In this document: one piece after another, positions 5,586 through 47,811 of the stretch
Position numbering within the stretch: position 1 is the stretch's first letter
Layout: every line of letters begins with the position of its first letter
Assembly: GCA_003142935.1 (NCBI GenBank)
Contig: PLOG01000072.1
Location: forward strand, 1-47,811
Source: Acidobacteriaceae bacterium
Lineage (GTDB): Bacteria > Acidobacteriota > Terriglobia > Terriglobales > Acidobacteriaceae
DNA length: 47,811 nucleotides
Reading direction: 5' to 3'
Notes under the pieces: model-generated
What the model saw: only the letters and a program-made list of their open reading frames with translations
What the model was told of the DNA's origin: nothing
Databases searched by the model: none
Position numbers and translations under genes: made by a program

Positions 5586-5703
5586 AGCATCGTCTCCATC
5601 TTGGCCCAACGCAGTTCCAGGATTCTGAGAATCCCGCGGACCGAACCGATTGACCAAAAATCTCCCAAATCGCCAAGGAAGTCACGCCATTCCCAGGACA
5701 TCT

Positions 5704-8882: not shown

Positions 8883-9134
8883 TTCGCCCGGATCTAATTT
8901 GGCGGATGACGGCTGGCCTAACCGCTTCTGGAAACCTGGTCGTGGACAGAGCGGAGATTGCGAGCGAGAGCTGTCGAAGCTCGTGACGAATGACGCCTGT
9001 TCCCCGATATCGGCAGTCAGTTTTTGCGCTGCATCTCTCCGTCTTCCATGGATGATGACCTGCTCACCTTCGTGAGCAAAGAGTCGAGCCAAGGCCTCCC
9101 CCAATCCGGTGGTCGAGCCGGTCACCAGGATTAC
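8883..9134 (-). pseudogene. Truncated short-chain dehydrogenase fragment in front of lipA
   Basis: In the lipA frame, upstream of its ATG, the sequence reads VILVTGSTTGLGEALARLF and then EGEQVIIHGRRRDAAQKL, which is the first beta-alpha-beta unit of an SDR with the TGxxxGxG cofactor motif. It begins directly after a stop codon (9135-9137), lacks a start, and runs into unrelated sequence after about 50 residues. I read it as a leftover of a deleted SDR gene joined to the lipA leader by rearrangement, not a fusion protein. Confidence 0.7.
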
Positions 9135-9177
9135 TTATAGTCCTTCAAGCGCACACTGGCAGGAGTTCCCCGCTGGT

Positions 9178-19307: not shown

Positions 19308-19949
19308 GTGGAATTCCCTCCTTGTAAATCTCAGACAGGAATCCGGTCGGGTAACGATCTCCACCGAGGTCCACTCAACCAATAAATGGAAAACTTGCTG
19401 GGACACTGAGTCTGTGTACGGCCTGGGGCAAAATAAGATCCATCTGAGAAGTGAGTTGTCGGCGCCACGATTGTCGCGAAGCAATCCCGAATATCGCTAT
19501 AATCTGCGTCGTTCACCTGGGCCTCACTCGACTCTCGGATTCCCGATCGATGCAAAAGGCACGAGATTCAATTTCAATTGCGATGCATTCGCGACGGTAT
19601 GGCAAAGGGTGATTGCCAAATGGAGATGCCTGGAGCAAAAGATCCCTCACGAACCTTTGAACTGTCTCTTACGCAATTCGAACAAGCACATCTGCATCCT
19701 TTGAAATTTGACCGCGCATGAATTCTCGACCAGATAACCCTCAGCCCTTCTGGCCAAGAAAGACCGCTCTCTAATTTCTCGCCAATGGTATCCACAAGGA
19801 GATGTCAGTGTCAAGAAATTATGTTGAAAATACTGCCTTGACACGGCGATTAATCGAGTGCTACCGTTTTCCTTCATCGCTGAGAGATCGATCTCTCAAA
19901 TTGAAGAAACGAAGTCCCAGGATTGATTGGTTATGGAAAGGACAACTAC
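19308..19949. other. Divergent intergenic region with an inverted repeat (19808-19844)
   Basis: 642 bases between the Tat glycosidase and the cupin gene, transcribed in opposite directions. GTGTCAAG (19808-19815) and CTTGACAC (19837-19844) form a perfect 8-bp inverted repeat, and the right arm contains a TTGACA that could be a -35 for the cupin operon, though the -10 is poor. TGTCAAGA and TGTTGAAA here are 13, not 12, bases apart, so it only loosely resembles the operator found elsewhere. A LacI site for the regulator at 25229 is an alternative. Nothing else recognised. Confidence 0.45.
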
Positions 19950-26489: not shown

Positions 26490-29400
26490 CTAGAAGCTGA
26501 TCTTTCCGGATAACTGGATGATGCGCGCATTCCCGTTGACGCTCGTAATCTGTCCAAACGTCGAGGGACTCTGGAGGTTACTGCTAAATGAGCCGTAGTT
26601 GGTGTGGTTGAAAAGGTTGAAGAACTCGGACCTGAACTGGAAGTTGACACTCTCCCAGATTGAGAAATTCTTCTGGAGAGAGAAATCGACGTCTTTGTAA
26701 GCCGGCCCCACCAGGTCGTCCCGTTTCCCGTTGCCGAATGTATAGGGCAGAGGCTCGGTAAACGCATAAGTAGAGACGTCCGGTAGCGTGGCACTCGTGT
26801 AAGTGGTCGGCGCAGCCAGCCATTGTTTAAGACCGTTCGCGCCGCCCGCCGACTGTTTATACGGACTCACGAGCCCTCGCTGCGCGGGCTGAAAGCCCCA
26901 ACCGGTATTGGCGATGTCCCCGCCAGCAGACGCCCACGCCGGCAGTCCGGAGTGCATGGAAACGATGCCGGCAGCCTGCCAGCCGCCTAATGTCTCCTGG
27001 ACGAACTTATTCGGCGTCTGCAGGAACATCCTGCCCTGTCCGAACGGCAACTGGTAGACTCCGCTAAATACGAACATCTGCGAAATGTTGTATTCCGACG
27101 GCCCCCAGGACGTCCTCGAATTGTACCAATTGGGCGATGCGTCTCCGCCCTCGGGATCGGACTGGATGTCCATCGACTTCGAATACGTATAGGAGGCAGT
27201 AAAAGTCGCTCCCGAGGCAAAGGGCCGCATCAGCTTGGCCTGCAGCCCATTGTAAGATGTGGGGTCCATGGCTCCGTAAGCGTCAAAGAGTCCGTATTGC
27301 GGGTATTGGGCGCGCGCCTGAACGGGCCCGGGCCCAGCGTACTCCGCTGCATTGCCGGAGTAATCATTAACCCACTGGTGCCGCCCGAGCGAGCCGACAT
27401 AGTCCAGATTCAGCGAGAGATGATCGGCCAGTTGCTGCTGAACGCCCGCGTTGAATTCCATGACGTAGCTGATTGGCGTATTTTGAAGATAGGCCTCGCC
27501 GAACGACGGATTCCCCGTGCTCAACAGCGATGCCTCGGTCGGAAGACTGTTGAGGTAGACCTTTGGCTTTCCGATGTCGAGGTTGGACAGAAGCTGCCCG
27601 TCCCCATTCGGCCAATTCAGGGCGAGGTTCTCATCTCCTTGGGTGAGCTGGTTGTCGTGCTGGTCGATCACGGCAACGGCTACGTGAGCCACGGTGTTTT
27701 GCTCGATCTCGTAGGTGGCCCCAAAGCGCGGCTCCCAGCCGTTCTTTTTGGCAGTGAAGTATCCTTGGCCACCGTTGTAGAGCGTGGGGTTGTTCACAGG
27801 CAGGAACGAGGTGGGGACGGTGAAGGGGGTGCCGACCGCAAACATTTTCCCCGTTGTCGGATCGAAGGTGAGCCCTTGCCTATGGTAGTTGCCGGGGGCG
27901 ATATAGTCCCACCTGGTCCCAAAGGTCAGCACCAGCTTTCTGTTCACCTGCCACTGGTCCTGGCCGTAGAAGCCCCACCAGGGTATCGTAAAGTCGAGGT
28001 TTTTTATTAGGTTGTATGTATAAAATGAGTCGATGATGCCTGCCAGATAGCTCGCGGGGCCGAATCCGGTTACACCGCTTGTTTCTCCATTGACGGAAGT
28101 GCCAGCCTGGTTAGCATTGGCCTGTGCGATCACAACATCTGCAACTTGCCGGAGAGGAAAGAACATTCCTCCGCCGCTGACGGTGTGATGCCCCATGGTT
28201 TTGGAACCATCGACATTGTATTCGTAGAACGTCGAAGGCCCTAGAGGATTGGAAATGTTGGCCACTTCGGTTACGCCATTCCCAATGGTGCCATAGATCG
28301 GCACGTTAGCGCCGAGCCTTGGCACCGACACTAATTGGGTGCCCATGGCTGCGGTCAGCGTTGGATCGTATGTTATTCCACTATCCGCGATGAGGTTCTC
28401 ATAAACATACGCCGCGCGCACATTGAGGATCGTCTTGGGGTTGAAAACGTGCGTGTATCCAAGCTCGATCTCGTCCGCAAAATTAGTGATGATGCTTCCA
28501 GGATATGTGGGGAATGCTCCCGGGCTAACCGCGTGGATATTGTTACGCGCAAGCCTGACAAAGACGGTATTATTGTCGTTCAACCGATGATCGAACCGGG
28601 CCCCAAACTGGTCGCCCCTTCTCGTCGACGTGCCATTGTATTCAAAGTTGGGGAATACACCTGGCGCAACATTCAAGTTCGGAGCCGGGTAAAACGCCTT
28701 GAGGTAAGCCAGGGCCTGTTGGCTGATATAGCTAGTTGGAACCTGACTGCCGGGTGAGCCGCTGGGAGCAGCCGGGAAAGGATCGCGGATGGTCAGCGCG
28801 GAATTCACCGGGTCGGGGCGACTGGTGGTCGCGTCATAGATCTCGTTCGCGTACATCGGCCTTCCCAGGTCGTCGGTGCCAACCGGCGTGGTCCCCACAA
28901 ACTGGGAAAAATTGCCGGCTATTTCGTTCGCAGTTAAAGTGTTTCCGAACTGCACCGAAGCCTGGTTGAACCGGTATCCTTCCCAGTATCCGGAGAAAAA
29001 TGTGCGGTTGCTGATGATCGGTCCGCCCACGAAAAGGCCGTATTGGTTTTGGTGATAAAAGGGCCGAGTGGTGTTGGGATACTGGGTCGCGTCAAAATCG
29101 TTGTTTCGGACAAACTCCCATGCGTCGCCGTGAAAACTGTTGGTGCCGGTTCGAGTCTCCACGTTAATGTTGGAGCCGGAACTCACGGCGAACTGCGCGT
29201 CCGTCATGTGCGCCTGCACGTTAAACTCCTCGGTTGCGTCCGGGGGGGGCGAGATCGCCCAGGCGTTATCGAACAGCTCGTTATTTTCAATGCCATCAAT
29301 GGTGAAGTTGTTCTCTTCGCCCCTCTGCCCATTGGTCGAAGGGCTGATGCCGCCCCCGCCTTCAGGAATTGCGAATGTGTACTGTTGGCCGTTTTCTACG

Positions 29401-29897
29401 GGTGCTGCGCCGGGCGACAGTAACGCCAGTTGCGTGAACTCGCGGCCGTTCAGCGGCAGGTCTACAACCTCCTGATGGTCTACGATCGTACTCAACGTCG
29501 CCGAGGTGGTATTTAGAAGCGGGGGGGCGGTGGTCACTTGAATGGTCTCGTTGTGTGCCGCCACATTGAGCTTGAAATCGAGCGTAACGCTCTGGTTCAC
29601 ATCGAGCTGAGCATTGTTTTGGACGATGGTTGCGAAGCCCTGTCTGGCCGCAGTCACCTTGTACATTCCCGGCGGCAACTGGGGAATAAGCCACACTCCC
29701 AGGTCGTTTGTAACTGCCGTGCGGGTCGCACCTGTCCCAAGATTTACGGCCGTGATTTGCACACCGGGCACAATCGCGCCATTGGGGTCGGTAATCGTTC
29801 CCGTCAGGAGCCCGTTGAGCGTTTGAGCCGAAACTTGCTGCGCCAGAAACCAGCCTGACAACAACAGCATCACCAACCACAAACTCCTCTTGAACAT
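26490..29897 (-). CDS. TonB-dependent receptor with N-terminal carboxypeptidase-regulatory-like domain
   Basis: 1135 residues, outer membrane. Signal peptide (hydrophobic LWLVMLLLSGWFLA, cleavage near VSAQ). A carboxypeptidase-regulatory-like beta-sandwich at about 28-110 (LTGTITDPNGAIVPGVQITA, VWLIPQLPPGMYKVTAARQGF), a plug region (VVDLPLNGREFTQLALLSPGA, NGQRGEENNFTIDGIENN) and a long beta-barrel ending in SGKISF with a C-terminal Phe as expected for outer-membrane barrels. This Oar-like type is greatly expanded in Acidobacteriota and is thought to import plant- or microbe-derived glycans. ATG 29897 is preceded by AGGAGG. Its promoter overlaps a near-perfect palindromic operator of the type found at five other places, so its expression is probably tied to the catabolic operons. 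Confidence 0.9.
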   Translation of the reverse strand: MFKRSLWLVMLLLSGWFLAQQVSAQTLNGLLTGTITDPNGAIVPGVQITAVNLGTGATRTAVTNDLGVWLIPQLPPGMYKVTAARQGFATIVQNNAQLDVNQSVTLDFKLNVAAHNETIQVTTAPPLLNTTSATLSTIVDHQEVVDLPLNGREFTQLALLSPGAAPVENGQQYTFAIPEGGGGISPSTNGQRGEENNFTIDGIENNELFDNAWAISPPPDATEEFNVQAHMTDAQFAVSSGSNINVETRTGTNSFHGDAWEFVRNNDFDATQYPNTTRPFYHQNQYGLFVGGPIISNRTFFSGYWEGYRFNQASVQFGNTLTANEIAGNFSQFVGTTPVGTDDLGRPMYANEIYDATTSRPDPVNSALTIRDPFPAAPSGSPGSQVPTSYISQQALAYLKAFYPAPNLNVAPGVFPNFEYNGTSTRRGDQFGARFDHRLNDNNTVFVRLARNNIHAVSPGAFPTYPGSIITNFADEIELGYTHVFNPKTILNVRAAYVYENLIADSGITYDPTLTAAMGTQLVSVPRLGANVPIYGTIGNGVTEVANISNPLGPSTFYEYNVDGSKTMGHHTVSGGGMFFPLRQVADVVIAQANANQAGTSVNGETSGVTGFGPASYLAGIIDSFYTYNLIKNLDFTIPWWGFYGQDQWQVNRKLVLTFGTRWDYIAPGNYHRQGLTFDPTTGKMFAVGTPFTVPTSFLPVNNPTLYNGGQGYFTAKKNGWEPRFGATYEIEQNTVAHVAVAVIDQHDNQLTQGDENLALNWPNGDGQLLSNLDIGKPKVYLNSLPTEASLLSTGNPSFGEAYLQNTPISYVMEFNAGVQQQLADHLSLNLDYVGSLGRHQWVNDYSGNAAEYAGPGPVQARAQYPQYGLFDAYGAMDPTSYNGLQAKLMRPFASGATFTASYTYSKSMDIQSDPEGGDASPNWYNSRTSWGPSEYNISQMFVFSGVYQLPFGQGRMFLQTPNKFVQETLGGWQAAGIVSMHSGLPAWASAGGDIANTGWGFQPAQRGLVSPYKQSAGGANGLKQWLAAPTTYTSATLPDVSTYAFTEPLPYTFGNGKRDDLVGPAYKDVDFSLQKNFSIWESVNFQFRSEFFNLFNHTNYGSFSSNLQSPSTFGQITSVNGNARIIQLSGKISF

Positions 29898-29960: not shown

Positions 29961-30006
29961 CTTATACGCCAACAGCAAGAAATCTGTCAACATCAATGTT
30001 GACAAC
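29961..30006 (-). promoter_or_regulatory. Promoter with palindromic operator for the TonB receptor
   Basis: Read leftward: -35 TTGACA (plus-strand 29985-29990), 18 bases, -10 TATAAG (29961-29966). The -35 is inside the 20-bp dyad TGTCAACATCAATGTTGACA (29985-30004), 9-bp arms around CA. Both halves fit TGTNNACA and start 12 bases apart. A repressor bound here would cover the -35. Confidence 0.75.
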
Positions 30007-35478: not shown

Positions 35479-36207
35479 TTAGCTATCTTCGTCCAGCTCC
35501 AGGCCGCCCTCGTTCTCATCGTCAAAGAAAGAGACCGATGCCGCCGGACGATGAAACACGGACTTGTCGAGATTCTTGTAAAGAGTCGAAAAATAGAGTT
35601 CAACCTCGTGCTCGACAAGCGCAATTGGAGTCTCGATTATGGTTTTGACATAGTTCTTGTGGTTCCGGTAGGACCGATCAAGGGTAATAAACCCCGATGA
35701 GTAGGCGCGAGCGATCAGGAAAAACAGCGGATTCATTGCCGTGTTCAGAGTGCGGCTGAGATGCTGCTTGCCGGAAAGCTTCCAAATTGTTTGGTGCAGC
35801 CGCATATCGGCCTGAAGGAATCGCTCGTTATCCTGGGAAGCGGATGCTGCTCTTATCGCATCCAGCGCCTTCATCAGAACGGCTTTCTTGGCGCCCGTGA
35901 ACTCTTCCCGCATGTAGCGGACGCAAAGGCCCTCCAACTTTCCGCGGATGCTGAAGACGACTTCGATCTCGTCGGGAGAGAGGTCGCGGATAAACGTGCC
36001 TTTCCGCGGCGTTATCGCGATCAGGCCGTCGCGCTCCAGCCGCAGGACGGCTTCGCGCACGGGTCCCCTGCTGCACGCCAGCTGATGGGCTATGTCATCC
36101 TCGATGAGCCGCTCGCGGGGTTTCAGTACTCCTCGATAAATGGCGTCGCGGATAAAAGCTTCCACCTTTTGACTAGTAGAAAGTCCGCCCTTGACGGCCT
36201 TTGGCAT
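35479..36207 (-). CDS. GntR-family (FadR/FCD type) transcriptional regulator
   Basis: 242 residues. Winged helix (SQKVEAFIRDAIYRGVLKPRERL, DIAHQLACSRGPVREAVLRL, RDGLIAITPRKGTFI) and an all-helical FCD effector domain (VVFSIRGKLEGLCVRYM, ADMRLHQTIWKLSG with the metal-binding Asp-His, SYRNHKNYVKTI and VEHEVELYF). The C-terminal tail is unusually acidic (FDDENEGGLELDED). FCD regulators respond to small carboxylates, often sugar acids. ATG 36207 has GAGGAGA upstream. A two-part TGTNNACA site lies 12 bases upstream of the ATG, so autoregulation is likely, and the same motif occurs in five other intergenic regions of this window. Confidence 0.92.
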   Translation of the reverse strand: MPKAVKGGLSTSQKVEAFIRDAIYRGVLKPRERLIEDDIAHQLACSRGPVREAVLRLERDGLIAITPRKGTFIRDLSPDEIEVVFSIRGKLEGLCVRYMREEFTGAKKAVLMKALDAIRAASASQDNERFLQADMRLHQTIWKLSGKQHLSRTLNTAMNPLFFLIARAYSSGFITLDRSYRNHKNYVKTIIETPIALVEHEVELYFSTLYKNLDKSVFHRPAASVSFFDDENEGGLELDEDS

Positions 36208-36218
36208 TGCTCTCCTCG

Positions 36219-36238
36219 GTAAACATGACTGTTAACAA
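36219..36238 (-). promoter_or_regulatory. Two-part operator before gntR
   Basis: Read leftward: TTGTTAACAGTCATGTTTAC. TGTTAACA and the imperfect TGTTTACC start 12 bases apart. It is too close to the start codon to include a -35, so the motif here stands on its own, not as a by-product of promoter sequence. Confidence 0.65.
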
Positions 36239-37802: not shown

Positions 37803-39080
37803 CTATCGCACCCCGTTGAATTCATGCACGGCGTCGATCATGGCCACAATGTTCTCGACGGGGGTCTCCGCCTGAATGCTGTGAATCGCGTTGAAGACGA
37901 ACCCTCCGCCGGGCGCGAAAACCTCGCACCTGCGAAGAACCTGCTCCCGGATCTCCGCGGGGGTTCCGAAGGGCAAAACATGCTGAGTATCCACGCCTCC
38001 GCCCCAAAAGACTATCTGATCGCCGAAGTTGGCCTTCAACTGCTCCGGTTCCATTCCCGTCGCGGAGCACTGCACAGGATTCAAAATGTCGAACCCGGCT
38101 TCGATCAACGAAGGAATGAACTTTGAAACCGCGCCGCAGGTATGCTTGAAGGTCTTCCACGGCGTGTGGGCGTGAATCCAGTCGTTGATCTGTTTGTAGT
38201 GGGGATAGTACAAGTTTCGGAAGGTTTTGACCGAGCAGAATGAAGAGGTCTGCGTTCCGAAATCCGTGCCACAGAGGTAAACCGCATCGATGCGATCCCC
38301 GACTTCGGAGTTGATGCGCTCAAGGTTCCCAATGGCAATCTCGTATTGCCGCTCGAAGACCTTGTGAATATAGTCTTGGCGGCTGGTTGTGGAAACATAC
38401 CATTCCGCAATGTCGCGTATGCCCTTGGGATGTTTCAGGGATGCTCCCGGAACATTGGCGATATCTCCAAGTCCGGTTCCACCAAAGGCGGCAATGACAC
38501 CGCGGCCAGTGGCCCAGACATCGTTCGCCGCGCGCACAAGGTAATCGAGACTCTCTCGCGAGATGGGGCTGAACTCCTCCAGGTTGTCTTCCGGATTCAA
38601 CTTCTCTTCCTCGATCGGATCCTGGCGGACGATGTTATCGAAGAACAAACCGCCGCGCGGCATTCGGCCGCTGGCCGCAGCCGTCGTATCGCCTTCTGGG
38701 TAGATCAGAGTGTCGCCGTTATCGTTGACAGTGATATTGAACTTCTCAGGAACCAGCACTTCAAGTCCGTTCAACTGCCAGCATTTCCACCGCTCTGCGG
38801 GGATTCCGAACTTGCCGACTCTAGGAAAAACACCGGCGACATCGATACCCATCGCTTCTCTCAGGTCGTCATCCAGTGTGCCTAGCATATGGAACGGCTC
38901 GGGAATGCGGATTGGGCGCTTCTCAAGCCCGTAATAAGCGCGCAGTTCCGCCACGCAACTGACGTGCACTCCGGAGACGGAAGTTCCGCCGATGTCGATC
39001 GGGACACGGTCCGGTTGTTTGTGATTCAACGCTGCGACGAGCCGTTCGCGGCTGGTCGACCTCCCCATTGAAGTTGTCAT
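37803..39080 (-). CDS. UroD-superfamily (MtaA/CmuA-like) putative methyltransferase
   Basis: 425 residues. Start: RERLVAALNHKQPDRVPIDIGG, the standard beginning of UroD-like methyltransferases. Predicted zinc ligands H313, C315 and C338 (FKHTCGAVSKF and NPVQCSATG), and IVFWGGGVDTQHVLPFGTPAEI follows as in corrinoid-dependent family members. In this superfamily zinc activates a thiol or other methyl acceptor/donor next to a methyl-corrinoid. The canonical haem-pathway enzyme (HemE) is shorter and lacks this HxC motif, so this is not HemE. ATG 39080 with GAGG upstream. Operator and promoter at 39228-39271 drive it and the downstream gene. Confidence 0.82.
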   Translation of the reverse strand: MTTSMGRSTSRERLVAALNHKQPDRVPIDIGGTSVSGVHVSCVAELRAYYGLEKRPIRIPEPFHMLGTLDDDLREAMGIDVAGVFPRVGKFGIPAERWKCWQLNGLEVLVPEKFNITVNDNGDTLIYPEGDTTAAASGRMPRGGLFFDNIVRQDPIEEEKLNPEDNLEEFSPISRESLDYLVRAANDVWATGRGVIAAFGGTGLGDIANVPGASLKHPKGIRDIAEWYVSTTSRQDYIHKVFERQYEIAIGNLERINSEVGDRIDAVYLCGTDFGTQTSSFCSVKTFRNLYYPHYKQINDWIHAHTPWKTFKHTCGAVSKFIPSLIEAGFDILNPVQCSATGMEPEQLKANFGDQIVFWGGGVDTQHVLPFGTPAEIREQVLRRCEVFAPGGGFVFNAIHSIQAETPVENIVAMIDAVHEFNGVR

Positions 39081-39345: not shown

Positions 39346-40395
39346 CTACTCCGGCGAGCTGAGCAGCGCGGCCATCACTCGGTCGATGGCCTCCGCCGGG
39401 CCGCGGAAGCCCCATACCTGGCTGACATCCTCGCAACGGTCGCGCCCCGTGCCCGCCCCGATGGCCGGCATATGATATTCGAGTTCGCTGAACTCGCCCC
39501 AATGGCTGTTCACATTGCAGGCCTGAACGCAGTACCCCGGATCGTCAGGCGCGTTGAAGGGCACATCGACGTACTCACCCGAGGGGTTAACCGCGAAGTT
39601 GCGGACGATCAGCGTGACCGCTCCATCCACTGCATAACGATAGCCCACGCGGCCCGTGGTCGCCGTGGCGCGGACGCCGATCTTCTGTTGACCCTGCGCC
39701 GCCATCCTCCAGCGAATCGCCCCCTGGGTCACGTGCAGATCGTTCTCGGCAATCGCTCCGAAGTAGATGTGCGGCTCGCTCCGGGTGTAGACCGGAATGG
39801 TCAGCAGACCCCGGTGTGGCATCTGGATCAGGTTCCAAAGACCCACAGCCGCATCTCCGGCGAGCATGGCCAGCACCGTGTGCTGGGTGTACCCGGCATA
39901 GACGACGCTGGGCGGCAACGGCGAGTCCTTCTCATAGCGCAGCGGATTGGCGGCCGGCGTCACCCATTTCCGAATCTCCAGATCGACGCTGGTTTTCATC
40001 CGGTGCAACACAACCGAGAGACGGTTGACCATGCACACCGTTCCATCGCCATCTTCGATCGTGTAGTTGCCCGGATCGAGTTGGCGCGGCTGGAAGTATC
40101 CGGAGAAGTCGATATCCGGATAGTTGGGGAAGAAAATATCCAGTTCGGGAGCCAGCCAGGTGCGATCCCCGCCCGAGTTCTGCCAGTCGCCACTGGCATA
40201 GAAGGCCTCGGCCGTTGCCGCGGAGGCGAGCGCCGGATGGGTCCAATAATAGTTTTCTTCGTCGCCCGCGCCAAACAACCCCAGCACCCGGCCGCCGTGC
40301 GGGAGAAGCAAAATCCGCGCGCCTCCCGGCATCTCCACCGTGCGCGCCGGCTTGCCGATTGCTTCCAGCGTTCCCGTCAAAGTTTCGTAATTCAT
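39346..40395 (-). CDS. Mutarotase-fold (DUF6786-like) protein
   Basis: 349 residues from ATG 40395 with GAGGAG upstream. The sequence is beta-rich: VEMPGGARILLLPHGGRVLGLFG at the start resembles the entry strands of galactose-mutarotase-like sandwiches, followed by NYYWTHPAL, GDWQNSGGDRTWLAPE and YAGYTQHTVLAMLAG. From memory it fits the DUF6786 group; no catalytic role is established for it. No signal peptide, so cytoplasmic. It begins 10 bases after the SDR stop and the two form one leftward unit. Likely binds or epimerises a sugar. Confidence 0.6.
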   Translation of the reverse strand: MNYETLTGTLEAIGKPARTVEMPGGARILLLPHGGRVLGLFGAGDEENYYWTHPALASAATAEAFYASGDWQNSGGDRTWLAPELDIFFPNYPDIDFSGYFQPRQLDPGNYTIEDGDGTVCMVNRLSVVLHRMKTSVDLEIRKWVTPAANPLRYEKDSPLPPSVVYAGYTQHTVLAMLAGDAAVGLWNLIQMPHRGLLTIPVYTRSEPHIYFGAIAENDLHVTQGAIRWRMAAQGQQKIGVRATATTGRVGYRYAVDGAVTLIVRNFAVNPSGEYVDVPFNAPDDPGYCVQACNVNSHWGEFSELEYHMPAIGAGTGRDRCEDVSQVWGFRGPAEAIDRVMAALLSSPE

Positions 40396-40405
40396 CGGTT
40401 CTCCT

Positions 40406-41248
40406 CTAAACGCCGGGCACGTAGCCGATGCCGCACTTCGCCGCCGATTCATGGCGAAAATCGCGGATCAGCGACATCAGGGCCGTCGTGCCGCCATCGG
40501 CCACAATGGTCTGGCCCACAATGTACTGTGCATCGTCCGAGCCAAGGAAGCAGGCAAGCTTGGCGATATCGGCGGGGAATCCGGGTCGGCCCAGAGGCAC
40601 GGTGTCCTTTGCGTCCTCGATGGCCGATTCAACCGTGTACCCCTCAAAAGCGTCGCTGTGGCTTTCCACAACCACCCAACCCGGTGCGATGGCATTGATG
40701 CGAACGCCCTTGTGGGCCAGTTCGATGCCCAATGTGCGCGTTTGCGCAATGATCGCGCCTTTGGTCCCCGCGTAAACCGAGTGCTCGGGCGCTCCGGAGA
40801 TGCCGTGTACCGAGGTGAGGTTCACGATGGCCCCGCCCCCGTGCTCGACCATATACGCCACCGCCTTTTGCATCATGAAGAACTGCGCACGGACGTTGAC
40901 GTGGTAGATGAGGTCGAACTGCTCTGGAGAGACCTTCAGAAGAGGCTTGTTGAAGGTGATGCCGGCGTTGTTGATCAGGCAATCGACGCCGCCCAGAAAG
41001 GCGATGGCGCGATCCGCAAAGCCAAGAACCTCGTCGATCTTGTCGAAGTTCGCCGCAAATGCCTCTGCCTTCCGGCCCATCGCCTGTATCTGCTCTACCG
41101 CGGACTTAGCTCCGCCGCCGCTGTGCGCGTAGTGAAGCACTACGTCCGCGCCCTGGCGTCCAAATTCCAATGCGACCTCCCGGCCGATACCGGTGCCCGA
41201 CCCGGTGACGATCACTTTCTTTGCGGCAAATCTCAGATCGCTGCCCAT
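40406..41248 (-). CDS. Short-chain dehydrogenase/reductase
   Basis: 280 residues. TGSGTGIGRE cofactor loop, INNAGITFN, NLTSVHG with Ser, YAGTK with Tyr and Lys (one residue shorter than the usual YxxxK reading SVYAGTKGA), and VADGGTTALMS near the end plus a 25-residue C-terminal extension (FRHESAAKCGIGYVPGV). LHYAH after strand 2 has no acidic residue, so NADP is plausible. ATG 41248 has AAGGAG 6 bases upstream, overlapping the stop of the truncated dehydratase. A sugar or sugar-acid dehydrogenase by context. Confidence 0.82.
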   Translation of the reverse strand: MGSDLRFAAKKVIVTGSGTGIGREVALEFGRQGADVVLHYAHSGGGAKSAVEQIQAMGRKAEAFAANFDKIDEVLGFADRAIAFLGGVDCLINNAGITFNKPLLKVSPEQFDLIYHVNVRAQFFMMQKAVAYMVEHGGGAIVNLTSVHGISGAPEHSVYAGTKGAIIAQTRTLGIELAHKGVRINAIAPGWVVVESHSDAFEGYTVESAIEDAKDTVPLGRPGFPADIAKLACFLGSDDAQYIVGQTIVADGGTTALMSLIRDFRHESAAKCGIGYVPGV

Positions 41249-41256
41249 CGCTCTCC

Positions 41257-41574
41257 TTAACCGATTGCTATTTGTCTTCCACTTGGCGAAGCGGCCGCAG
41301 TCAAGGACTGCGCGGCCTCCATCCCTCTGAATGGTAGTGTTTGCACGAGTGCGCGGCCCATTCGGACGATCAGACTCTCGATATCGAATGGATTGGCGCT
41401 CAGAATATACCTATCTTCAAGGAACTCATGAATCGGCGAACGGACTGCTTCCTCCTGCCATTCCAGAGACGCCTCCCGAACGCCGGTTAGACCGTTGTCG
41501 GTATGCAGGCGCAGAAACTGATAGTTCCGCTGTCCGGCGTTACGGAGAAATGTTTCTACTTTAGTTAACTTCAT
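41257..41574 (-). pseudogene. Truncated enolase-superfamily dehydratase (N-terminal domain only)
   Basis: 105 codons. Residues 1-75 are a capping domain of the mandelate racemase group (MKLTKVETFLRNAGQRNYQFL, HTDNGLTGVREASLEWQEE, FLEDRYILSANPFDIE). The sequence then turns into an unrelated tail and stops; the whole catalytic barrel is missing. It starts 4 bases after the transporter stop and its own stop sits in the Shine-Dalgarno of the SDR, so the deletion preserved operon spacing. Probably a broken paralogue of the dehydratase at 33379. It could be expressed but cannot be active. Confidence 0.75.
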
Positions 41575-41578
41575 TCGC

Positions 41579-42604
41579 TTATCCCTGATTTCCCATGCTA
41601 AGCACGCAGACCGCGACAACCAACAAACCAAGCGCGGCAAAGTTCAACCGCAAGGTTAAAGAATCCGAGTTGCGCCACTCTCCGCGGAGCAGCCCCCAGA
41701 GCGAAGAGCTCACGATCATGGTGGCTTGAAACACGGGCCAGCCGATTACCGCTCCCAGGCTTCCCAAAGCGGTTGCTCCCCATCCGTAAAGAAGCACGCC
41801 ACCGATCCATAAAACACCCATAACCGAGGCCAAGAACCAGTGATTCAAGGCATCCTTCCTCCCGAACCCGCCCCAGGTTTTTCCGCGGGTGAGTTTCACG
41901 ATGCAATAACCCGCATTGCTAATAAATCCACCAATCAGAGCTAACGCCCAGACCGCATTGGTAGCGACGGCCGGATGGGTGCCGTGTTCTATTGCGGATG
42001 TCACGATATCGGAGCCAAAAGCAAAGCTGAAATTCAGCATCGGTGCCAGCGTTCCCGCTATGACGCAGAGCAAGAGTCCTTCTGCCATTGCGGAACTTTG
42101 CTTGATTTCAAGATTCTTGGGCGCCTCCGCTTTTTCACGGCGTCTCCCCGCCACGCCCAAAAGCGCCACTCCGCAGAGCGTTAAAGCCACCCCCAAAAGC
42201 ACCAGATGCCCAGATCTCTGGTTCATGCGCTGCGGTTCCAGCATAAGGAACGGTATTAAGCAGCCCAGCGCGGCGCTCATGCCCACAACAATGGCAATGC
42301 TGATTGCCATGCCGATCGAATCAATGGCCAATCCACACAAAACGTTGGCAACGCCCCACGCGAAACCGAAGAGAATCGTCAGCAACAACCTTTCCGTGGC
42401 GACGGATCGGTATACATCCAATAGATTGGGCACTGAAACGATTGCGGCGATCCAGGGAACGATGAGCAATGCGACTATGCTGTACACAGCCCATGAATTT
42501 TCCCAGCTCCAGCGCCGGGCGTACTTGAGCGGCAAAGCGAAACTGCCCCCCATAAACCCGCCGAGAAGGACAACAAGCGCACCCAGCAAAACTCCAGTGG
42601 TCAT
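41579..42604 (-). CDS. rhaT: RhaT-like L-rhamnose/sugar:proton symporter
   Basis: 341 residues with about 10 transmembrane helices, close to the 344 of enterobacterial RhaT. Marker segments: LLGGFMGGSFALPLKYARRWSWEN, WGVANVLCGLAIDSIGMAIS, a central basic cytoplasmic loop (GRRREKAEAPKN), NFSFAFGSD and GGVLLYGWGATALGSLGAVIGWP. RhaT is the family name; specificity for L-rhamnose here is not proven, but a decayed L-rhamnose mutarotase lies in the same leftward block, which supports a 6-deoxy-hexose. Downstream of the mta genes by about 330 bases. Confidence 0.8.
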   Translation of the reverse strand: MTTGVLLGALVVLLGGFMGGSFALPLKYARRWSWENSWAVYSIVALLIVPWIAAIVSVPNLLDVYRSVATERLLLTILFGFAWGVANVLCGLAIDSIGMAISIAIVVGMSAALGCLIPFLMLEPQRMNQRSGHLVLLGVALTLCGVALLGVAGRRREKAEAPKNLEIKQSSAMAEGLLLCVIAGTLAPMLNFSFAFGSDIVTSAIEHGTHPAVATNAVWALALIGGFISNAGYCIVKLTRGKTWGGFGRKDALNHWFLASVMGVLWIGGVLLYGWGATALGSLGAVIGWPVFQATMIVSSSLWGLLRGEWRNSDSLTLRLNFAALGLLVVAVCVLSMGNQG

Positions 42605-42933
42605 CTTAGTATGGACCGGCAGGTCTGGGTTTTAACCCGACCGGAACTTCCCGGCGCTCTCCTATCGCACAATATTCGCTCTTTGGTATCGGATCAAAAC
42701 GCTTTTTGGCGCCGTGCCGATTTCGACGCGCAGATGCTTGAGTTGTTCCCCGTTTATGGTGCACTTCTCCGTCACGTCGCAGGTCTTGGCGAACGGCCTC
42801 GAATTCGCGAGTGAAGACCTGGCAGATGATTGCTTTGAATCGCATGGTCAGAGTGCGTCTTCGATTGCGAGCGCATGGCAGCGATCGATCCGCGGATGGG
42901 CGGAAACAAACAGAAGACACGCTCCGGCGCTGG
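42605..42933 (-). pseudogene. Possible DUF1638 remnant between mtaB and the transporter
   Basis: Spacer of about 330 bases. Within it, minus strand near 42790-42842, an ATG opens MRFKAIICQVFTREFEAV, which resembles the start of DUF1638 proteins that commonly sit beside corrinoid methyltransferases. After about 18 residues the similarity ends in both possible frames, so I read it as a truncated leftover. Low confidence because the match is short and from memory. Confidence 0.35.
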
Positions 42934-44325
42934 CTATAATCCATAGCTCGCTTTGTCGTAGAGGTTACCATATTGCGATTCCAGCTCGATCGTCAGCGCC
43001 TTTTCGTCCGCTGGAAATGCTCCCAGCGCATCGTCGATGCGCGTTAACCACTCCTGCTCCTTCCGGGAGAGATGGAGTTTCTCAAGCGCAACGCCGTCCT
43101 TCAGCAGTTCAACAGCGGCCCGGCCGGCGGCGATGACGCGATGGTAAGGCGTATCAGCGGCGACGATTGCACTGGCGATACGGATGGTGGCGTCCGCCGA
43201 TAATACCGCCGCCTGCGGGCTCAGCCACTCGTCGGATGCGATCATCCAGTTGCGCATTTGCAGAGCGCCGCCTTGACTGGCGGCTGCGATATTCATTAGA
43301 CGGCAGTCGTAGGCAAGCAACTCGGTGTAGACTTCTGGAGCATTGCCGGAGAGCAGACGCACATTCTGTACCGACTCGTTGCTCCAAAGATCGCACATGG
43401 CGGCGGCAATGTTGCCGAGTGGACTGAAGTGCGCACAGCTGGCCGACTTGCCTTCCATGGAAATCGGACAACCGGTGATCGCCTTGATGACCGGCCCCTC
43501 GTAGGCGCAGTCCTTTGATGGGCCGACAGCCCCCTGCTCGAAGGCTGACAGGCTGCGGACGGCGCTCATGGCGCGCACGACCGCGGCCAGCACCTCGGGC
43601 AGCATTTTCTGGTGTGCAAGCTGCATGGCGGTATTGGCGAATCCGCAGGCAGAGTCGCCGCCACTCACAACCCCTGGATGCGCGGCACATATTGAACCAA
43701 TCTGGGCCCACAGCCAGGACATGTCTCTGGGCGCAAGCACTCCCAGCGCAAAGACGATGCCCGAGAAATCTCCATACATCAGGGCCTGGTCGTGGACTTC
43801 TTTGCCACCGATGGACTCGATGGAGAGGATGTCTGCGCCGGCCTCTGCGCACAGTTCCAGCGAACGCTTGAGCCGCTGCCACGGCTCGCCGGTGCGCATC
43901 AGCGGTGGTTTCTGCTGGTCGCGAATGTCGGTGGGGGTGACGCGGAGAGCAGAAGGCAGATGGTGTTTTTCGTAGCAGGCTTTGAGGTGGCTCTTCAAAA
44001 CCGCGGTAATCTCCGCACCCCACTCCGGATTATCTGTCATGGGCGGCAGAAGCTCAAACTCCAGCACGATGCCGGGAACGCCCAGCGAGACCGCCCGACG
44101 CAGAATCTGCGCGGCCATCTCCTCATAGTGATCTACGACTTCAGTCCACGTGCCCCGCTCGATATTCATGGCGGGCAGGGTGAAGTTGACTTCGGGGAAG
44201 ACCATGCCTGCACCAATCGTCAATCCGAGCCCGCAAGCAAGGGGATTCGGGCTCACGCCATACAACAGGCCTTCTGAATCCGGAATCGCAAGAGTGGAAT
44301 ACTTTCGCACTTTCTGTTTCATCAT
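42934..44325 (-). CDS. mtaB: Methanol:corrinoid methyltransferase-type protein MtaB
   Basis: 463 residues (archaeal MtaB has about 461). Substrate-side methyltransferase that moves the methyl of methanol to the Co(I) of MtaC. The predicted zinc ligands E170 (SIESIGGKEVHDQ), C227 (GGDSACGFANTAM) and C273 (KDCAYEGPVIKA) match the order and spacing of E164, C220 and C269 in the Methanosarcina enzyme (57 and 46 residues apart here, 56 and 49 there). ATG ATG at 44325, five bases after mtaA. Zinc-site conservation supports a methyltransferase acting on an alcohol or ether oxygen; methanol is the known substrate, a methyl ether in sugars is my alternative. Confidence 0.9.
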   Translation of the reverse strand: MMKQKVRKYSTLAIPDSEGLLYGVSPNPLACGLGLTIGAGMVFPEVNFTLPAMNIERGTWTEVVDHYEEMAAQILRRAVSLGVPGIVLEFELLPPMTDNPEWGAEITAVLKSHLKACYEKHHLPSALRVTPTDIRDQQKPPLMRTGEPWQRLKRSLELCAEAGADILSIESIGGKEVHDQALMYGDFSGIVFALGVLAPRDMSWLWAQIGSICAAHPGVVSGGDSACGFANTAMQLAHQKMLPEVLAAVVRAMSAVRSLSAFEQGAVGPSKDCAYEGPVIKAITGCPISMEGKSASCAHFSPLGNIAAAMCDLWSNESVQNVRLLSGNAPEVYTELLAYDCRLMNIAAASQGGALQMRNWMIASDEWLSPQAAVLSADATIRIASAIVAADTPYHRVIAAGRAAVELLKDGVALEKLHLSRKEQEWLTRIDDALGAFPADEKALTIELESQYGNLYDKASYGL

Positions 44326-44329
44326 GGTT

Positions 44330-45424
44330 TTATATCCTTGCAAGAAGATCGCCAGCCGCAACTGCTGCTGAACCAGCCATCATCGCATCCACTTTTCTTC
44401 TGATCGTTTCCTGGGCTTCAGGCACGAACAGAACGTCGCACTCCGAACCTACGATATGTGGATGGCCGCAGGCTTTCATATTTGCAACCAATTCGTCTCT
44501 GCGGCGAATCACTTCCTCGATCGGCATGGCGCCATCGGAGTAGAACGACTTGGTCGGGAGATTGCCATAGAGTACAACATCCTCAGGTACAAGGCGGGCA
44601 TCCTCCCAGAGCTTGCGCGAGCTGCCCAGACTGAGGATGACGGGATGGAGCTGGTTGGCGAAGGCTTCCACCATCGGATCGATCAGTTCTCCGCAGTCGT
44701 GGAAGATCAGGTCGCAGCCGGCGTCTTCAAGCGCGGCCTTCAGGCGCAGGTTGGGTTCCATTACCAGGCGCTCGAACAGGTTTGAGCCTGCCTTGAGTTG
44801 CCGGGGCGAGATGAATGCGCTGCATGCTGTGGGCTCGCAGATCATGATGGCCCTGGCGCCATGCAGGATCTGGCTGCGCAGGGACCGCAGAACCGCGGCC
44901 TCCGACACGCGCAAGCATTGCCACAGGAGCTTTACTTCGTCCGAATCCCCTGCTTCGACTCCCGATCCAGCCATCGCCGTTAACGTTATGGGGTCTGCCA
45001 GGAGGCGCGTCGTTAATGAGAAGGGCCCGATTGCCATTCCCACCGGGACCAAATCCGGCAGAGTGTCAATGTAGGCGAGCGCTTCGTCGCGGGCGGTGCT
45101 TCCGGCGCAAAGTGGCACAGCCTGTGCACCAAGCAAGGTGGCGAGGACCGTTTCGTCCAAAGGCGAAGTAAAGTGAAAGCGCTCTGCCTCGGTTTCAGCA
45201 ACTCCCGCGAGCGCCAGCAGATCGATCTTTTCCAGTCGCAGGTCCATGAGTGGAACCGCGAGCGGCGTACCCCAGCGCCGCGCTGCCCGCTCAATCACGC
45301 GTCCCAGCGCCACACCATCGTTACGAACCATTTCGGGCTCGCGCTCTTCATGCATTACCAGGTCAGTGCCGATGGGCATGCACAACCCGCGCGCTGCAAG
45401 ATCAAGATAAAACTGGCGATTCAT
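44330..45424 (-). CDS. mtaA: MtaA-type UroD-superfamily methyltransferase
   Basis: 364 residues. Zinc ligands H242, C244 (LIFHDCGELIDP) and C329 (GSECDVLFVPEA), spacing 2 and 85, very close to MtaA (H239, C241, C316). MtaA moves the methyl from MtaC to coenzyme M in methanogens; in bacteria the acceptor is usually tetrahydrofolate or another thiol. ATG 45424 has AAGGAG 8 bases upstream; the frame is open further but without a ribosome site. Located between mtaC and mtaB in one leftward operon, which supports function in the same cycle. Confidence 0.85.
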   Translation of the reverse strand: MNRQFYLDLAARGLCMPIGTDLVMHEEREPEMVRNDGVALGRVIERAARRWGTPLAVPLMDLRLEKIDLLALAGVAETEAERFHFTSPLDETVLATLLGAQAVPLCAGSTARDEALAYIDTLPDLVPVGMAIGPFSLTTRLLADPITLTAMAGSGVEAGDSDEVKLLWQCLRVSEAAVLRSLRSQILHGARAIMICEPTACSAFISPRQLKAGSNLFERLVMEPNLRLKAALEDAGCDLIFHDCGELIDPMVEAFANQLHPVILSLGSSRKLWEDARLVPEDVVLYGNLPTKSFYSDGAMPIEEVIRRRDELVANMKACGHPHIVGSECDVLFVPEAQETIRRKVDAMMAGSAAVAAGDLLARI

Positions 45425-45547
45425 CAGGCTGCTCCTTCCGCTTGACAGGCCCGCGGATTGCAGCCTTGACCGGCGGTTATTTTGATGGCCGGAAGCGCAG
45501 TTTGTGAGGCTTCCGAACGGTCTTTCCAATTTCGCTCCAATGCCGTT

Positions 45548-46186
45548 TCAGGCTGTAGCGAGAAGTGTCTTGACTAAGCTAACTGCTCCGCTTGCGTTCT
45601 CGCTGTAGCCGTCCGCGCCGATCTCTCTCGCGTACTGGCTAGTGACGGGCGCGCCGCCGATGAGCACCTTCACATTGGTGCGCACGCCTGCATTTGTGAG
45701 TGCGTCGATGGTCGTCCTCATGGCGGGCATGGTCACAGTGAGCAGCGCCGACATGCAGACGATATGGGGCTCGCGCTCCACAACCGCGGCCACAAAGTTC
45801 TCGGGCGAGACATCGGTGCCGAGGTCGATGACCTCGAATCCGCTGCCTTCCAGCATGGACGCGACAATATTCTTTCCGATGTCGTGCAGATCTCCCTTCA
45901 CCGTCCCGATCACCACACGCACCGCCAATCTCTGTCCCGAAGCGACCAGAAGCGGCCGGAGCAGTTCCATCGCGCTTTTCATAGCACGACCTGCCAACAG
46001 TAACTCGGGAACGAAGTATTCTTCCGCTTCGAACAGGCGGCCCACTTCGTCCATTGCCGGCACCATGGAGTCGGCAATTAGCTCCATCGGCGGGGTACCC
46101 GCCGCAAGCGCGGCCTCGGTAGCGGCGTGCGCCTGTTTCGCATTGCCATTCAAAATTGCGTCGTAGAGTTCGTTCAATTGCGCCAT
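45548..46186 (-). CDS. mtaC: Corrinoid protein MtaC-type
   Basis: 212 residues: helical N-terminal cap domain (NELYDAILNGNAKQAHAATEAAL, MVPAMDEVGRLFEAEEYFVPELL) and Rossmann-like B12-binding domain with the base-off motif GDLHDIGKN (D99, H101), GFEVIDLGTDV and IGGAP. The His provides the lower axial ligand of cobalt. ATG 46186 with GAGGA upstream; an in-frame TTG at 46219 would overlap the membrane-protein gene and lacks support. Methyl carrier between MtaB and MtaA. The only corrinoid protein in the window, so the three UroD-type proteins may all use it. Confidence 0.93.
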   Translation of the reverse strand: MAQLNELYDAILNGNAKQAHAATEAALAAGTPPMELIADSMVPAMDEVGRLFEAEEYFVPELLLAGRAMKSAMELLRPLLVASGQRLAVRVVIGTVKGDLHDIGKNIVASMLEGSGFEVIDLGTDVSPENFVAAVVEREPHIVCMSALLTVTMPAMRTTIDALTNAGVRTNVKVLIGGAPVTSQYAREIGADGYSENASGAVSLVKTLLATA

Positions 46187-46215: not shown

Positions 46216-46773
46216 TCAAGAGCAGGTACTCTGCATCTGTTTGGCCGGCATGAATGCTTTGCCGTACTGGGCGACAGCAAAAATCAGCAGGCTGAATACT
46301 GTTTCGGAGACAATGCTGTTACGGAAAAACGGCAGCGCGGCAATGTAGCAGGTCCAAAGACCGCTCCATGTCTTTGGATACATGCCCCATGCAGTCCACA
46401 CGGCGAGGTTGCTGGCCAGGAAGAACGACACCGACGCCAGCAGTGATGCACCCATGACACGTGGAATGGAAACAAAAGTCCCCAGCACCGCCGCGCCGAG
46501 CAGCATCACCGCCAGATACCAAATCCAGGTCACGGCGTGATCGCTACTGAGCGCAAAGCCGTACCGGTGCGTGGTAAGAAAAATATCCGTTCCCACCAGG
46601 GCAAGGAATGGTATCGGAAACTCTCGCTTTGGTCTGCTCGCTCCAAAGAAGAGTATGCAGGAGAATACGGGTATGGAATTAAAAGGTTGACTCACCGTGA
46701 GGCGCAGGACCGCTGCGACCAGGATGAGAAGGTACGGCCATAGAATCGAGTTCCTGTTTTGCGTCCATTTCAT
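46216..46773 (-). CDS. DUF6580-like membrane protein (ECF S-component-like)
   Basis: 185 residues, five to six transmembrane helices (ILWPYLLILVAAVLRLTV, FPIPFLALVGTDIFL, WIWYLAVMLLGAAVLGTFV, ASLLASVSFFLASNLAVW, CYIAALPFFRNSIVSETVFSLLIFAVA). ATG 46773 preceded by AGGAGG. The size and helix layout match small membrane proteins of DUF6580, recalled from memory, which resemble substrate-binding subunits of energy-coupling-factor transporters. It begins the mtaCAB unit and overlaps nothing essential, so import of cobalamin precursor or cobalt for MtaC is a reasonable guess; no direct evidence. Confidence 0.65.
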   Translation of the reverse strand: MKWTQNRNSILWPYLLILVAAVLRLTVSQPFNSIPVFSCILFFGASRPKREFPIPFLALVGTDIFLTTHRYGFALSSDHAVTWIWYLAVMLLGAAVLGTFVSIPRVMGASLLASVSFFLASNLAVWTAWGMYPKTWSGLWTCYIAALPFFRNSIVSETVFSLLIFAVAQYGKAFMPAKQMQSTCS

Positions 46774-47449: not shown

Positions 47450-47492
47450 ATTATGCGTCTGAATATAGAGAACTGTCAACAATTTTGTTCAC
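47450..47492 (-). promoter_or_regulatory. Promoter and operator before the rhaM-mta block
   Basis: Read leftward: -35 TTGACA (plus-strand 47473-47478), 17 bases, -10 CATAAT (47450-47455). The -35 is part of TGTCAACA (47473-47480), and the second half TGTTCACT (47485-47492) starts 12 bases on, the spacing of the other five sites. Downstream genes: rhaM remnant, small ORF, DUF6580 gene, mtaC, mtaA, mtaB. Confidence 0.7.
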
Positions 47493-47811
47493 TATATTCT
47501 GAAACGCGATCTGACCTTGCAGGAGCATCATCCGATGACGGCGCTCCTTCGAGCCAGCACGGGATCGAACGCGCGTTGGACGAAGCTCCACACTGCTTGC
47601 TGTACAGCCTACTAAAGGAGGAAGAAATCTTGTCTAAGCTTCCTTCTCCTCTCCTAGCCGAAGCCGATGCTTTAGGTCCGAACTCCCCCGTTCCGGTTCC
47701 TTGTGCAAATAGGCTGAGGTCGGGACACGTTCCTACTGAATTTTGAAGCTCCCGCGTTTTCCCCAAGAAACTCTGCGTTGCCCTAAAACAAAGAAGCCAG
47801 CGACTTGCTAA
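47493..47811. other. Right end of the window, no gene assigned
   Basis: 319 bases. A plus-strand TTG at 47630 follows AAAGGAGG and opens 38 codons (LPSPLLAEADALGPNSPVPV) that stop at 47746; I do not recognise it and it may be chance. The sequence beyond may be upstream region of a gene outside the window. Confidence 0.3.

What the first reader, a model, noticed from the sequence alone, without database searches (positions are those of the whole stretch)
42934..46186. Complete MtaA-MtaB-MtaC corrinoid methyltransferase set in a sugar-catabolic, TonB-dependent bacterium
All three proteins keep their key residues: MtaB E170/C227/C273, MtaA H242/C244/C329, MtaC D99/H101. Such systems are best known from methanogens and acetogens. 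Here they sit with a RhaT-like transporter, a rhamnose mutarotase remnant and two more UroD-family proteins, under a promoter of the shared operator type. No coenzyme M biosynthesis, reductive activator (RamA-like) or methyl-tetrahydrofolate partner is seen in the window. This may be a system for O-demethylation of methylated sugars, or of methanol freed from methyl esters, not described in Acidobacteriota to my knowledge.
Basis: partly seen in the sequence, partly recalled or inferred. Interest (0 to 1): 0.8.

Follow-up and report, generated by a model that had tools for sequence, protein, structure and literature searches.

The report
Acidobacterial MtaB system in sugar regulon
A soil bacterium carries an intact vitamin-B12-dependent system for pulling methyl groups off small molecules, wired into its sugar-eating genes, so it may strip methyl groups from plant sugars rather than use methanol as such genes are usually read.

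Summary
In detail: window 42934-46186 (-) encodes intact MtaB (E170/C227/C273), a UroD-superfamily methyltransferase (H242/C244/C329) and a corrinoid protein (D99/H101), under purifying selection (dN/dS about 0.03-0.1). The operon starts at a promoter with an operator shared by nearby sugar genes (9 sites, 1.5 expected) and is flanked by an L-rhamnose mutarotase remnant and a RhaT-like symporter. The 'missing' activator exists elsewhere: the genome has two RACE genes and three MtaBs. 'MtaA' holds only at superfamily level; its His-Cys-Cys site suggests a thiol acceptor. mtaB in Acidobacteriota is not new: it is expressed in Stordalen Mire, read there as methanol use (PMC10805028). New is the sugar linkage: among 80 related loci GH2 lies near MtaB in 7, a sugar symporter in 5, and a same-genus relative has an alpha-L-rhamnosidase-type gene after the operon. 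I favour O-demethylation of methylated deoxysugars, such as moss 3-O-methyl-L-rhamnose, with the methyl going to homocysteine; methanol is a close rival. The substrate is untested, 58 of 80 loci show no such sugar gene, and the enrichment test was post hoc.

The parts
42934..44325 (-). MtaB-family methyl donor:corrinoid methyltransferase, 463 aa, Zn ligands E170/C227/C273
   Evidence: PF12176 E 3.1e-154; 39% identity to M. barkeri MtaB; residues
44330..45424 (-). UroD-superfamily methyltransferase with His-Cys-Cys site, likely methyl-corrinoid:thiol methyltransferase ('MtaA' position), 364 aa
   Evidence: PF01208 E 1.2e-8; motif invariant in 11 sequences; model pLDDT 86.5, Foldseek ties UroD (2.5e-8) and MtaA 4ay7 (4.4e-8)
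45548..46186 (-). Corrinoid protein MtaC, 212 aa, DxHxxG motif
   Evidence: PF02607 and PF02310; nearest PDB chain 1y80, E 6.6e-55
46216..46773 (-). DUF6580 protein at the head of the cassette
   Evidence: PF20221 E 4e-32; same place in own C13 and C165, L029 and L077
47081..47326 (-). L-rhamnose mutarotase (rhaM) remnant between promoter and DUF6580
   Evidence: PF05336 E 7.8e-13
47450..47493 (-). Promoter-like TTGACA-18-CATAAT overlapped by the shared operator (47474-47493)
   Evidence: consensus matches only
42792..42845 (-). Stub, about 18 codons, of the DUF1638-like gene that is intact beside RACE in own C13
   Evidence: sequence; intact copy; family name recalled, not scanned
41579..42604 (-). 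RhaT-like sugar:proton symporter
   Evidence: PF06379 E 1e-31; NF010022 267.4 bits, cut-off 369
41257..41640 (-). N-terminal fragment of a mandelate-racemase/dehydratase-family protein
   Evidence: PF02746 E 4.9e-4, 20.7 bits against cut-off 22; NF010624 E 3.5e-7
40406..41248 (-). SDR dehydrogenase
   Evidence: PF13561 E 9e-54
39346..40452 (-). DUF6786 protein
   Evidence: PF20583 E 1.4e-12
37803..39080 (-). UroD425: UroD-superfamily protein with His-Cys but no third Cys; candidate second O-demethylase
   Evidence: PF01208 E 6.3e-17; family alignment; relatives in the MtaC operons of own C13 and C169
36641..37738 (-). UroD365: UroD-superfamily protein without an HxC motif
   Evidence: PF01208 E 4.1e-6; only HLH found
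35479..36207 (-). Regulator, called GntR-type by eye, with an operator-like site at 36218-36237 just upstream
   Evidence: 32% identity over 81 residues to the GntR/FCD protein of L040; site; not scanned against Pfam
29985..30004 (+). Perfect operator copy between the divergent genes 26490-29897 (called TonB receptor by eye, not scanned) and the SDR operon from 30732
   Evidence: SDR

Best explanation
It is a working corrinoid O-demethylation module. Shown: intact catalytic residues, purifying selection, activator genes elsewhere in the genome, and an operator shared with sugar genes. Inferred mechanism: RACE (from C13 or C202) reduces MtaC to Co(I); MtaB uses Zn(II) to activate the oxygen of R-O-CH3 and Co(I) takes the methyl; the UroD protein with the His-Cys-Cys site passes the methyl from MtaC to a thiol, most likely homocysteine, giving methionine, from which MetH and MetF could move one-carbon units to folate. 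Inferred substrate: a methyl ether on a sugar brought in for catabolism, with 3-O-methyl-L-rhamnose (acofriose) of moss arabinogalactan proteins as first candidate. UroD425 may be a second O-demethylase using the same corrinoid protein.
For: Residues intact; dN/dS 0.03-0.1 for MtaB, MtaC and UroD_A including the window copies. RACE twice, MtaB three times, corrinoid proteins four times besides MetH. Operator at the 26490-29897/SDR pair, the regulator, UroD425 and on the operon's promoter. Rhamnose-type genes: rhaM remnant, RhaT in the window and at the head of the L044 run, an alpha-L-rhamnosidase-type gene (Bac_rhamnosid6H E 1.8e-11) directly after MtaC-MtaB-RACE-UroD425 in L031, same genus. 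Other lineages: GH2 near MtaB in 7 loci; sugar symporter in own C13, L030, L034, L041, L077, L078; L078 also has aldose-epimerase and D-lyxose-isomerase-type genes. The gene after MtaB in 11 loci (family c5) fold-matches GH138, GH115 and GH67, on a low-confidence model. Own-genome background: 0 of 20 stretches hit by 25 sugar-gene queries, against 22 of 80 named loci and 2 of 5 own stretches, same-locus queries left out. Thiol acceptor: His-Cys-Cys rule in PMC10418091 (passage); homocysteine-methyltransferase or MetE-type gene clusters within about 5 kb of MtaB in 8 named loci. Acofriose occurs in Sphagnum and other moss AGPs (PMC6918356, passages).
Against: Methanol is the only established MtaB-family substrate that I know of (recalled). 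34 of 80 loci show no MtaC by my query, some because contigs end, and 58 of 80 show none of the sugar genes sought. The queries were picked after looking, so that test is biased; 8 of the 20 background stretches are under 7 kb. In the near/far test sugar genes were also common far from MtaB. The operator was not found upstream of the MtaC operons of C13, C165 or C169. No L-rhamnose isomerase PF06134 in the genome. rhaM is broken and was found in no other locus held. In L029 and L033 the operon lies by genes that look like tyrS or a phosphohexomutase (by eye), not sugar loci.
Confidence: 0.42

Rival explanations
1. A methanol:corrinoid methyltransferase system: MtaB takes the methyl of methanol released from plant matter and by other microbes, and the cell uses it as a one-carbon supplement while growing on sugars.
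For: MtaB family hit far above the Pfam cut-off and conserved Glu-Cys-Cys Zn site; Acidobacteriota mtaB expression in peat was read as methanol use (PMC10805028); co-regulation with plant-sugar use fits plant methanol.
Against: Score 426.8 against the methanogen MtaB equivalog cut-off of 720; no pectinesterase PF01095 and no PF03598 of CODH/ACS in the genome; sugar symporters and mutarotases near the operons are not needed for methanol.
Confidence: 0.35
2. The methyl donor is another O-methyl compound met during plant decay, such as a methoxylated aromatic, a methyl ester or a methyl glycoside, and the sugar neighbours are incidental.
For: The UroD superfamily holds aryl O-demethylases MtvB, OdmB, VdmB and MtoB (PMC13222342, passages); UroD425 accompanies MtaC without MtaB at C169. 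Copy C165 lies by an MttB-family and a Rieske gene.
Against: MtaB is a different family from those; I saw no aromatic ring-cleavage gene among the window proteins scanned; C169 lies with GH30 and an outer-membrane receptor-type gene.
Confidence: 0.15
3. The window copy is a decaying duplicate: it lacks RACE and most of the DUF1638-like gene and sits in a broken rhamnose operon.
For: Stub and no RACE next to MtaB in the window; rhaM and MR/MLE fragments; an MtaB remnant with a stop at C202 and a UroD_A remnant at C165.
Against: MtaB, MtaC and UroD_A are full length with dN/dS about 0.03-0.1; activators are available in trans.
Confidence: 0.08

Closest known systems
MtaABC methanol:coenzyme M methyltransferase of Methanosarcina (PDB 2i2x, 4ay7)
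   Same: MtaB Zn ligands, MtaC type, UroD-type third protein with His-Cys-Cys
   Different: MtaB 39% identical, under the methanogen equivalog cut-off; third protein scores 18.6 and 21.9 bits against MtaA-type models
MtaABC of acetogens (Moorella, Acetobacterium)
   Same: MtaB plus corrinoid protein; 1y80, the nearest PDB chain to MtaC, is from Moorella (organism recalled)
   Different: Moorella MtaA is a 29.7 kDa protein said to pass methyl to folate (PMC13391211, passages), here a 364-aa UroD-type protein; no PF03598
Acidobacteriota mtaB of Stordalen Mire (PMC10805028)
   Same: Same phylum and gene family; two same-genus loci are MAGs named bog_373 and bog_218 (L033, L034), a naming I take, from recall, for Stordalen
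   Different: That paper infers methanol; the term 'sugar' does not occur in its main text
UroD-superfamily O-demethylases MtvB, OdmB, VdmB, MtoB and dehalogenase CdmB
   Same: UroD425 is about as long as MtoB (47-48 kDa, PMC8630106 passage) and lacks the third Cys, as O-type members may
   Different: No reference sequence was compared; relation to UroD425 is untested
MtgBCD glycine betaine demethylation tied to methionine synthesis in aerobic Ruegeria (PMC12478193, abstract)
   Same: Corrinoid demethylation in an aerobe tied to methionine synthesis, as proposed here
   Different: Different donor enzyme and substrate

Membership tests
MtaB family (PF12176) | Full-length profile match with Glu-Cys-Cys Zn ligands | tested here: met
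   514.7 bits, profile 2-449 of 460; ligands aligned to 2i2x_A
Methanogen methanol MtaB equivalog (NF040651) | Score over the curated cut-off of 720 | tested here: not met
   426.8 bits
Methanol:corrinoid methyltransferase (function) | Methylation of Co(I)-MtaC from methanol | not testable with these tools
   needs an assay
MtaA/CmuA or MtbA-type methyltransferase (TIGR01463, NF004889) | Score over the curated cut-off | tested here: not met
   18.6 against 235.4 and 21.9 against 244 bits
UroD-superfamily S-methyltransferase (rule in PMC10418091) | His-Cys-Cys Zn coordination | tested here: met
   H242/C244/C329 invariant in 11 sequences; by sequence only, substrate not shown
UroD-superfamily O-methyltransferase (UroD425, same rule) | One or both Cys ligands replaced | tested here: met
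   HTCG/HSCG present in 8 aligned sequences, no conserved third Cys
Corrinoid protein of three-component methyltransferases | Helical cap plus B12-binding domain with DxHxxG | tested here: met
   below the cut-offs of all 16 NCBIfam models matched
Corrinoid methyltransferase system with reductive activator | RACE/RamA-like activator in the genome | tested here: met
   PF14574 at C13 and C202, over the cut-off
Acetogenic methanol use | CODH/ACS present | tested here: not met
   PF03598, 0 matches in a 97% complete genome; of 14 control genomes two archaea match, no acetogen control
Methylotrophic CoM system | Coenzyme M synthesis | not tested
   no search made

The most novel reading that the evidence does not exclude
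A branch of the MtaB family across Acidobacteriota, Ignavibacteria/Bacteroidota and others is not a methanol enzyme but a B12-dependent demethylase of O-methylated sugars (3-O-methyl-L-rhamnose in peat; perhaps 4-O-methylglucuronate-type uronides in the Ignavibacteria branch with a uronidase-fold neighbour), handing the methyl to homocysteine, so part of the bacterial 'methanol methylotrophy' inferred from mtaB in wetlands is sugar demethylation.
Probability: 0.35. Interest if true: 0.82.

Novelty: new variant of a known kind. Interest (0 to 1): 0.5.

Why it matters
mtaB was used as a marker of methanol use in a wetland carbon study (PMC10805028). If this branch acts on sugar methyl ethers, such inferences need revising, and a B12-dependent route for methylated plant sugars, which my paper searches did not find described, would be added to carbohydrate metabolism. 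It also gives a concrete test: moss acofriose against methanol.

Tried and rejected
Considered and set aside: (1) A missing activator as evidence against function: two RACE genes found. (2) Contamination: the own stretches with the copies have GC 54.4-60.6% and tetranucleotide correlations 0.86-0.99; other Acidobacteriota loci correlate about as well, so this does not settle it. (3) A B12 riboswitch on the operon: the only Rfam hits in six sources are two tRNAs, in L113 and L013. (4) I first took the 'mutarotase remnant' for a misreading of the MR/MLE fragment; the rhaM piece was then found. (5) Profiles of UroD_A and UroD425 against solved-structure sequences: none for UroD_A, one weak UroD hit (E 0.073) for UroD425. 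(6) The c5 protein against solved-structure sequences: none; its model has mean pLDDT 61 and the full-length fold alignments have rmsd of 25-29, so they are leads only. (7) MtaB tree (91 rows, two loci with MtaB pieces under 400 aa left out): the window falls in an 11-row set (SH-aLRT 100) within a 40-row, mostly Acidobacteriota set (96). M. barkeri is a 4.4-long branch, and no acetogen MtaB of shown function was in it, so the tree cannot say which branch is methanol-specific. (8) Phylum search: 3 of 396 genomes match, but the two beyond the own genome are fragments at E 3e-5 and 3e-4; in the genus 6 of 59 genomes have MtaB. (9) Near/far Pfam test: 100 of 250 near genes and 114 of 220 far genes scanned, L012, L014, L015 and L101 left out. 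GH2 in 5 near; in the far set it is not among the 25 families shown, so at most 2. SSF 2 near and 3 far; GH10 3 and aldose epimerase 2 far. Not a clear enrichment.

Papers: ten searches of the PMC library. None of the titles and abstracts listed reports corrinoid-dependent demethylation of sugars, but lists were capped (for example 10 of 5,730, 20 of 101) and most subscription papers are not held.

Names from recall or by eye, from no call: DUF1638, tyrS, phosphohexomutase, TonB and LacI and GntR labels where no Pfam call is cited, Stordalen as source of the bog MAGs. 
Full report
1. What is there. The window is contig C46 of a 5.2 Mb draft genome (219 contigs, 97% complete, 4% contamination). 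On the minus strand lie, in order of transcription, a promoter-like site overlapped by an operator (47493-47450), a remnant of the L-rhamnose mutarotase gene rhaM (47326-47081), DUF6580 (46773-46216), the corrinoid protein MtaC (46186-45548), a UroD-superfamily protein (45424-44330; 'UroD_A'), MtaB (44325-42934), a stub of a DUF1638-like gene (name recalled) and a RhaT-like symporter (42604-41579). The starts used are those that relatives share (MtaB 463 and UroD_A 364 aa; MtaC 212 aa).

2. It does not look dead. dN/dS is about 0.05-0.10 for MtaB, 0.03-0.09 for MtaC and 0.09-0.10 for UroD_A (one pair); YN00 failed for several pairs and synonymous change is near saturation. The window lacks RACE next to MtaB, but the genome holds two RACE genes. 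At C13 the operon is complete: DUF6580, MtaC, MtaB, DUF1638-like, RACE, UroD425. C165 has DUF6580, MtaC, a UroD_A remnant and MtaB; C169 has MtaC and UroD425 without MtaB; C202 has RACE, a DUF1638-like gene and an MtaB remnant with a stop.

3. Distribution. In the named genome collection 180 relatives were found and the best 80 kept, nearly all MAGs, of Acidobacteriota, Ignavibacteriota, Bacteroidota, Planctomycetota and smaller groups. In the window's own genus 6 of 59 genomes have MtaB. Equal contig lengths show that L030, L031, L033, L034 and L077 are of that genus. Some NCBI names for 80-82% identical proteins are Terracidiphilus, so the genus may be that; not shown.

4. Not new to the phylum. 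PMC10805028 (passages) reports that Acidobacteriota in Stordalen Mire exclusively expressed mtaB and genes for methoxylated compounds, and infers competition for methanol.

5. The sugar link. In the window the operator occurs by the divergent pair 26490-29897/SDR operon (29985, 30719), the regulator (36218), UroD425 (39251, 39263) and the MtaB operon (47474); the other three of the nine sites (8929, 14921, 38711) may be chance. In L031 an alpha-L-rhamnosidase-type gene follows MtaC-MtaB-DUF1638-like-RACE-UroD425 on the same strand. In L044 a RhaT homologue heads a RhaT-UroD-DUF1638-like-MtaC-MtaB run. A sugar symporter of the XylE type lies next to MtaB or its operon in own C13, L030, L034 and L041, and farther off in L077 and L078 (Pfam or NCBIfam on three). 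GH2 genes lie near MtaB in L041, L042, L060, L061, L089, L090 and L093 (Pfam on five of the seven). L077 has a GH59 gene between its symporter and the cassette. Own C13 continues, beyond a 760-aa protein without Pfam match, into genes with cellulase-like, GH63-like and GH42-type domains, and own C169 has a GH30 gene. In 11 loci of the Ignavibacteria/Bacteroidota/Kryptoniota branch the next gene belongs to a 777-aa family whose model matches GH138, GH115 and GH67 best, at low model confidence.

6. Control and its limits. 25 sugar-gene queries taken from these loci hit 0 of 20 own-genome stretches (starts of every tenth contig, one skipped, 284 kb, 8 of them under 7 kb), 2 of 5 own MtaC-bearing stretches (78.6 kb, two of the five from C13) and 22 of 80 named loci (1235 kb), same-locus queries left out. 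The queries were chosen after seeing the loci and the background is one genome, so this is support, not proof. The near/far comparison showed no clear enrichment.

7. Methyl acceptor. PMC10418091 (passage) states that UroD-superfamily S-methyltransferases have His-Cys-Cys zinc sites, while in O-methyltransferases one or both Cys are replaced. UroD_A has His-Cys-Cys in all 11 sequences aligned; UroD425 lacks a conserved third Cys in 8 aligned. Genes of a homocysteine S-methyltransferase cluster lie with MtaB in L050, L054, L079, L105 and L107, and of a MetE-type cluster in L069, L072 and L091, with a longer member in L039 (one of each checked; two near genes match PF02574). The genome has MetH, two further homocysteine methyltransferase domains, two MTHFR domains, two COX1 genes over the cut-off and no PF03598. 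So the methyl group probably enters methionine and folate in a respiring heterotroph. This chain is inferred.

8. Substrate. Methanol is the family's known substrate (recalled). The rhamnose-type neighbours and the occurrence of 3-O-methyl-rhamnose in Sphagnum and other moss arabinogalactan proteins (PMC6918356, passages) make acofriose the first candidate. The genome lacks RhaA, so rhamnose would need another route; the window has SDR, MR/MLE-dehydratase and metallo-beta-lactamase-fold genes that could form an oxidative one, but none passes a rhamnose-specific cut-off.

9. Verdict. Real, functional-looking, already known in its phylum as mtaB. What is new and testable is the sugar association, the thiol-type third component and the resulting doubt about calling it methanol use.

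Noticed in passing
L014 (own C169) 7592-9826: MtaC followed by UroD425 without MtaB, on a stretch with an outer-membrane receptor-type gene and a GH30 gene: perhaps a UroD-type O-demethylase on its own.
   Followed up: partly
L013 (own C165) 4941-7675: MttB-family gene beside a Rieske oxygenase gene just upstream of an MtaB/MtaC copy.
   Followed up: partly
L040, L048, L057, L074, L075: MtaB genes with a regulator of one cluster directly upstream or nearly so (Pfam on L040: GntR/FCD); in four of the five no MtaC was found in view.
   Followed up: partly
L056 10001-11374: Aquisphaera insulae JC669, a named strain, carries an MtaB (66% identity) without MtaC in view: a possible laboratory strain for tests.
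   Followed up: no
L067 11475-13808 and 10 relatives: 777-aa family without Pfam match, directly after MtaB in 11 loci; model resembles GH138/GH115/GH67 at low confidence.
   Followed up: partly
L067 5101-7344 and 6 relatives: 747-aa conserved protein without Pfam or PDB match in the same clusters.
   Followed up: no
own C202 23837-24055 (L113 4838-5056): MtaB C-terminal remnant with a stop, beside RACE, at a site where relatives L029, L032, L033 and L077 have the same downstream gene after their RACE.
   Followed up: partly
window 17157-19484; L032 10316-12664: DUF6259 proteins recur in MtaB-bearing contigs (also tblastn hits in L054).
   Followed up: no
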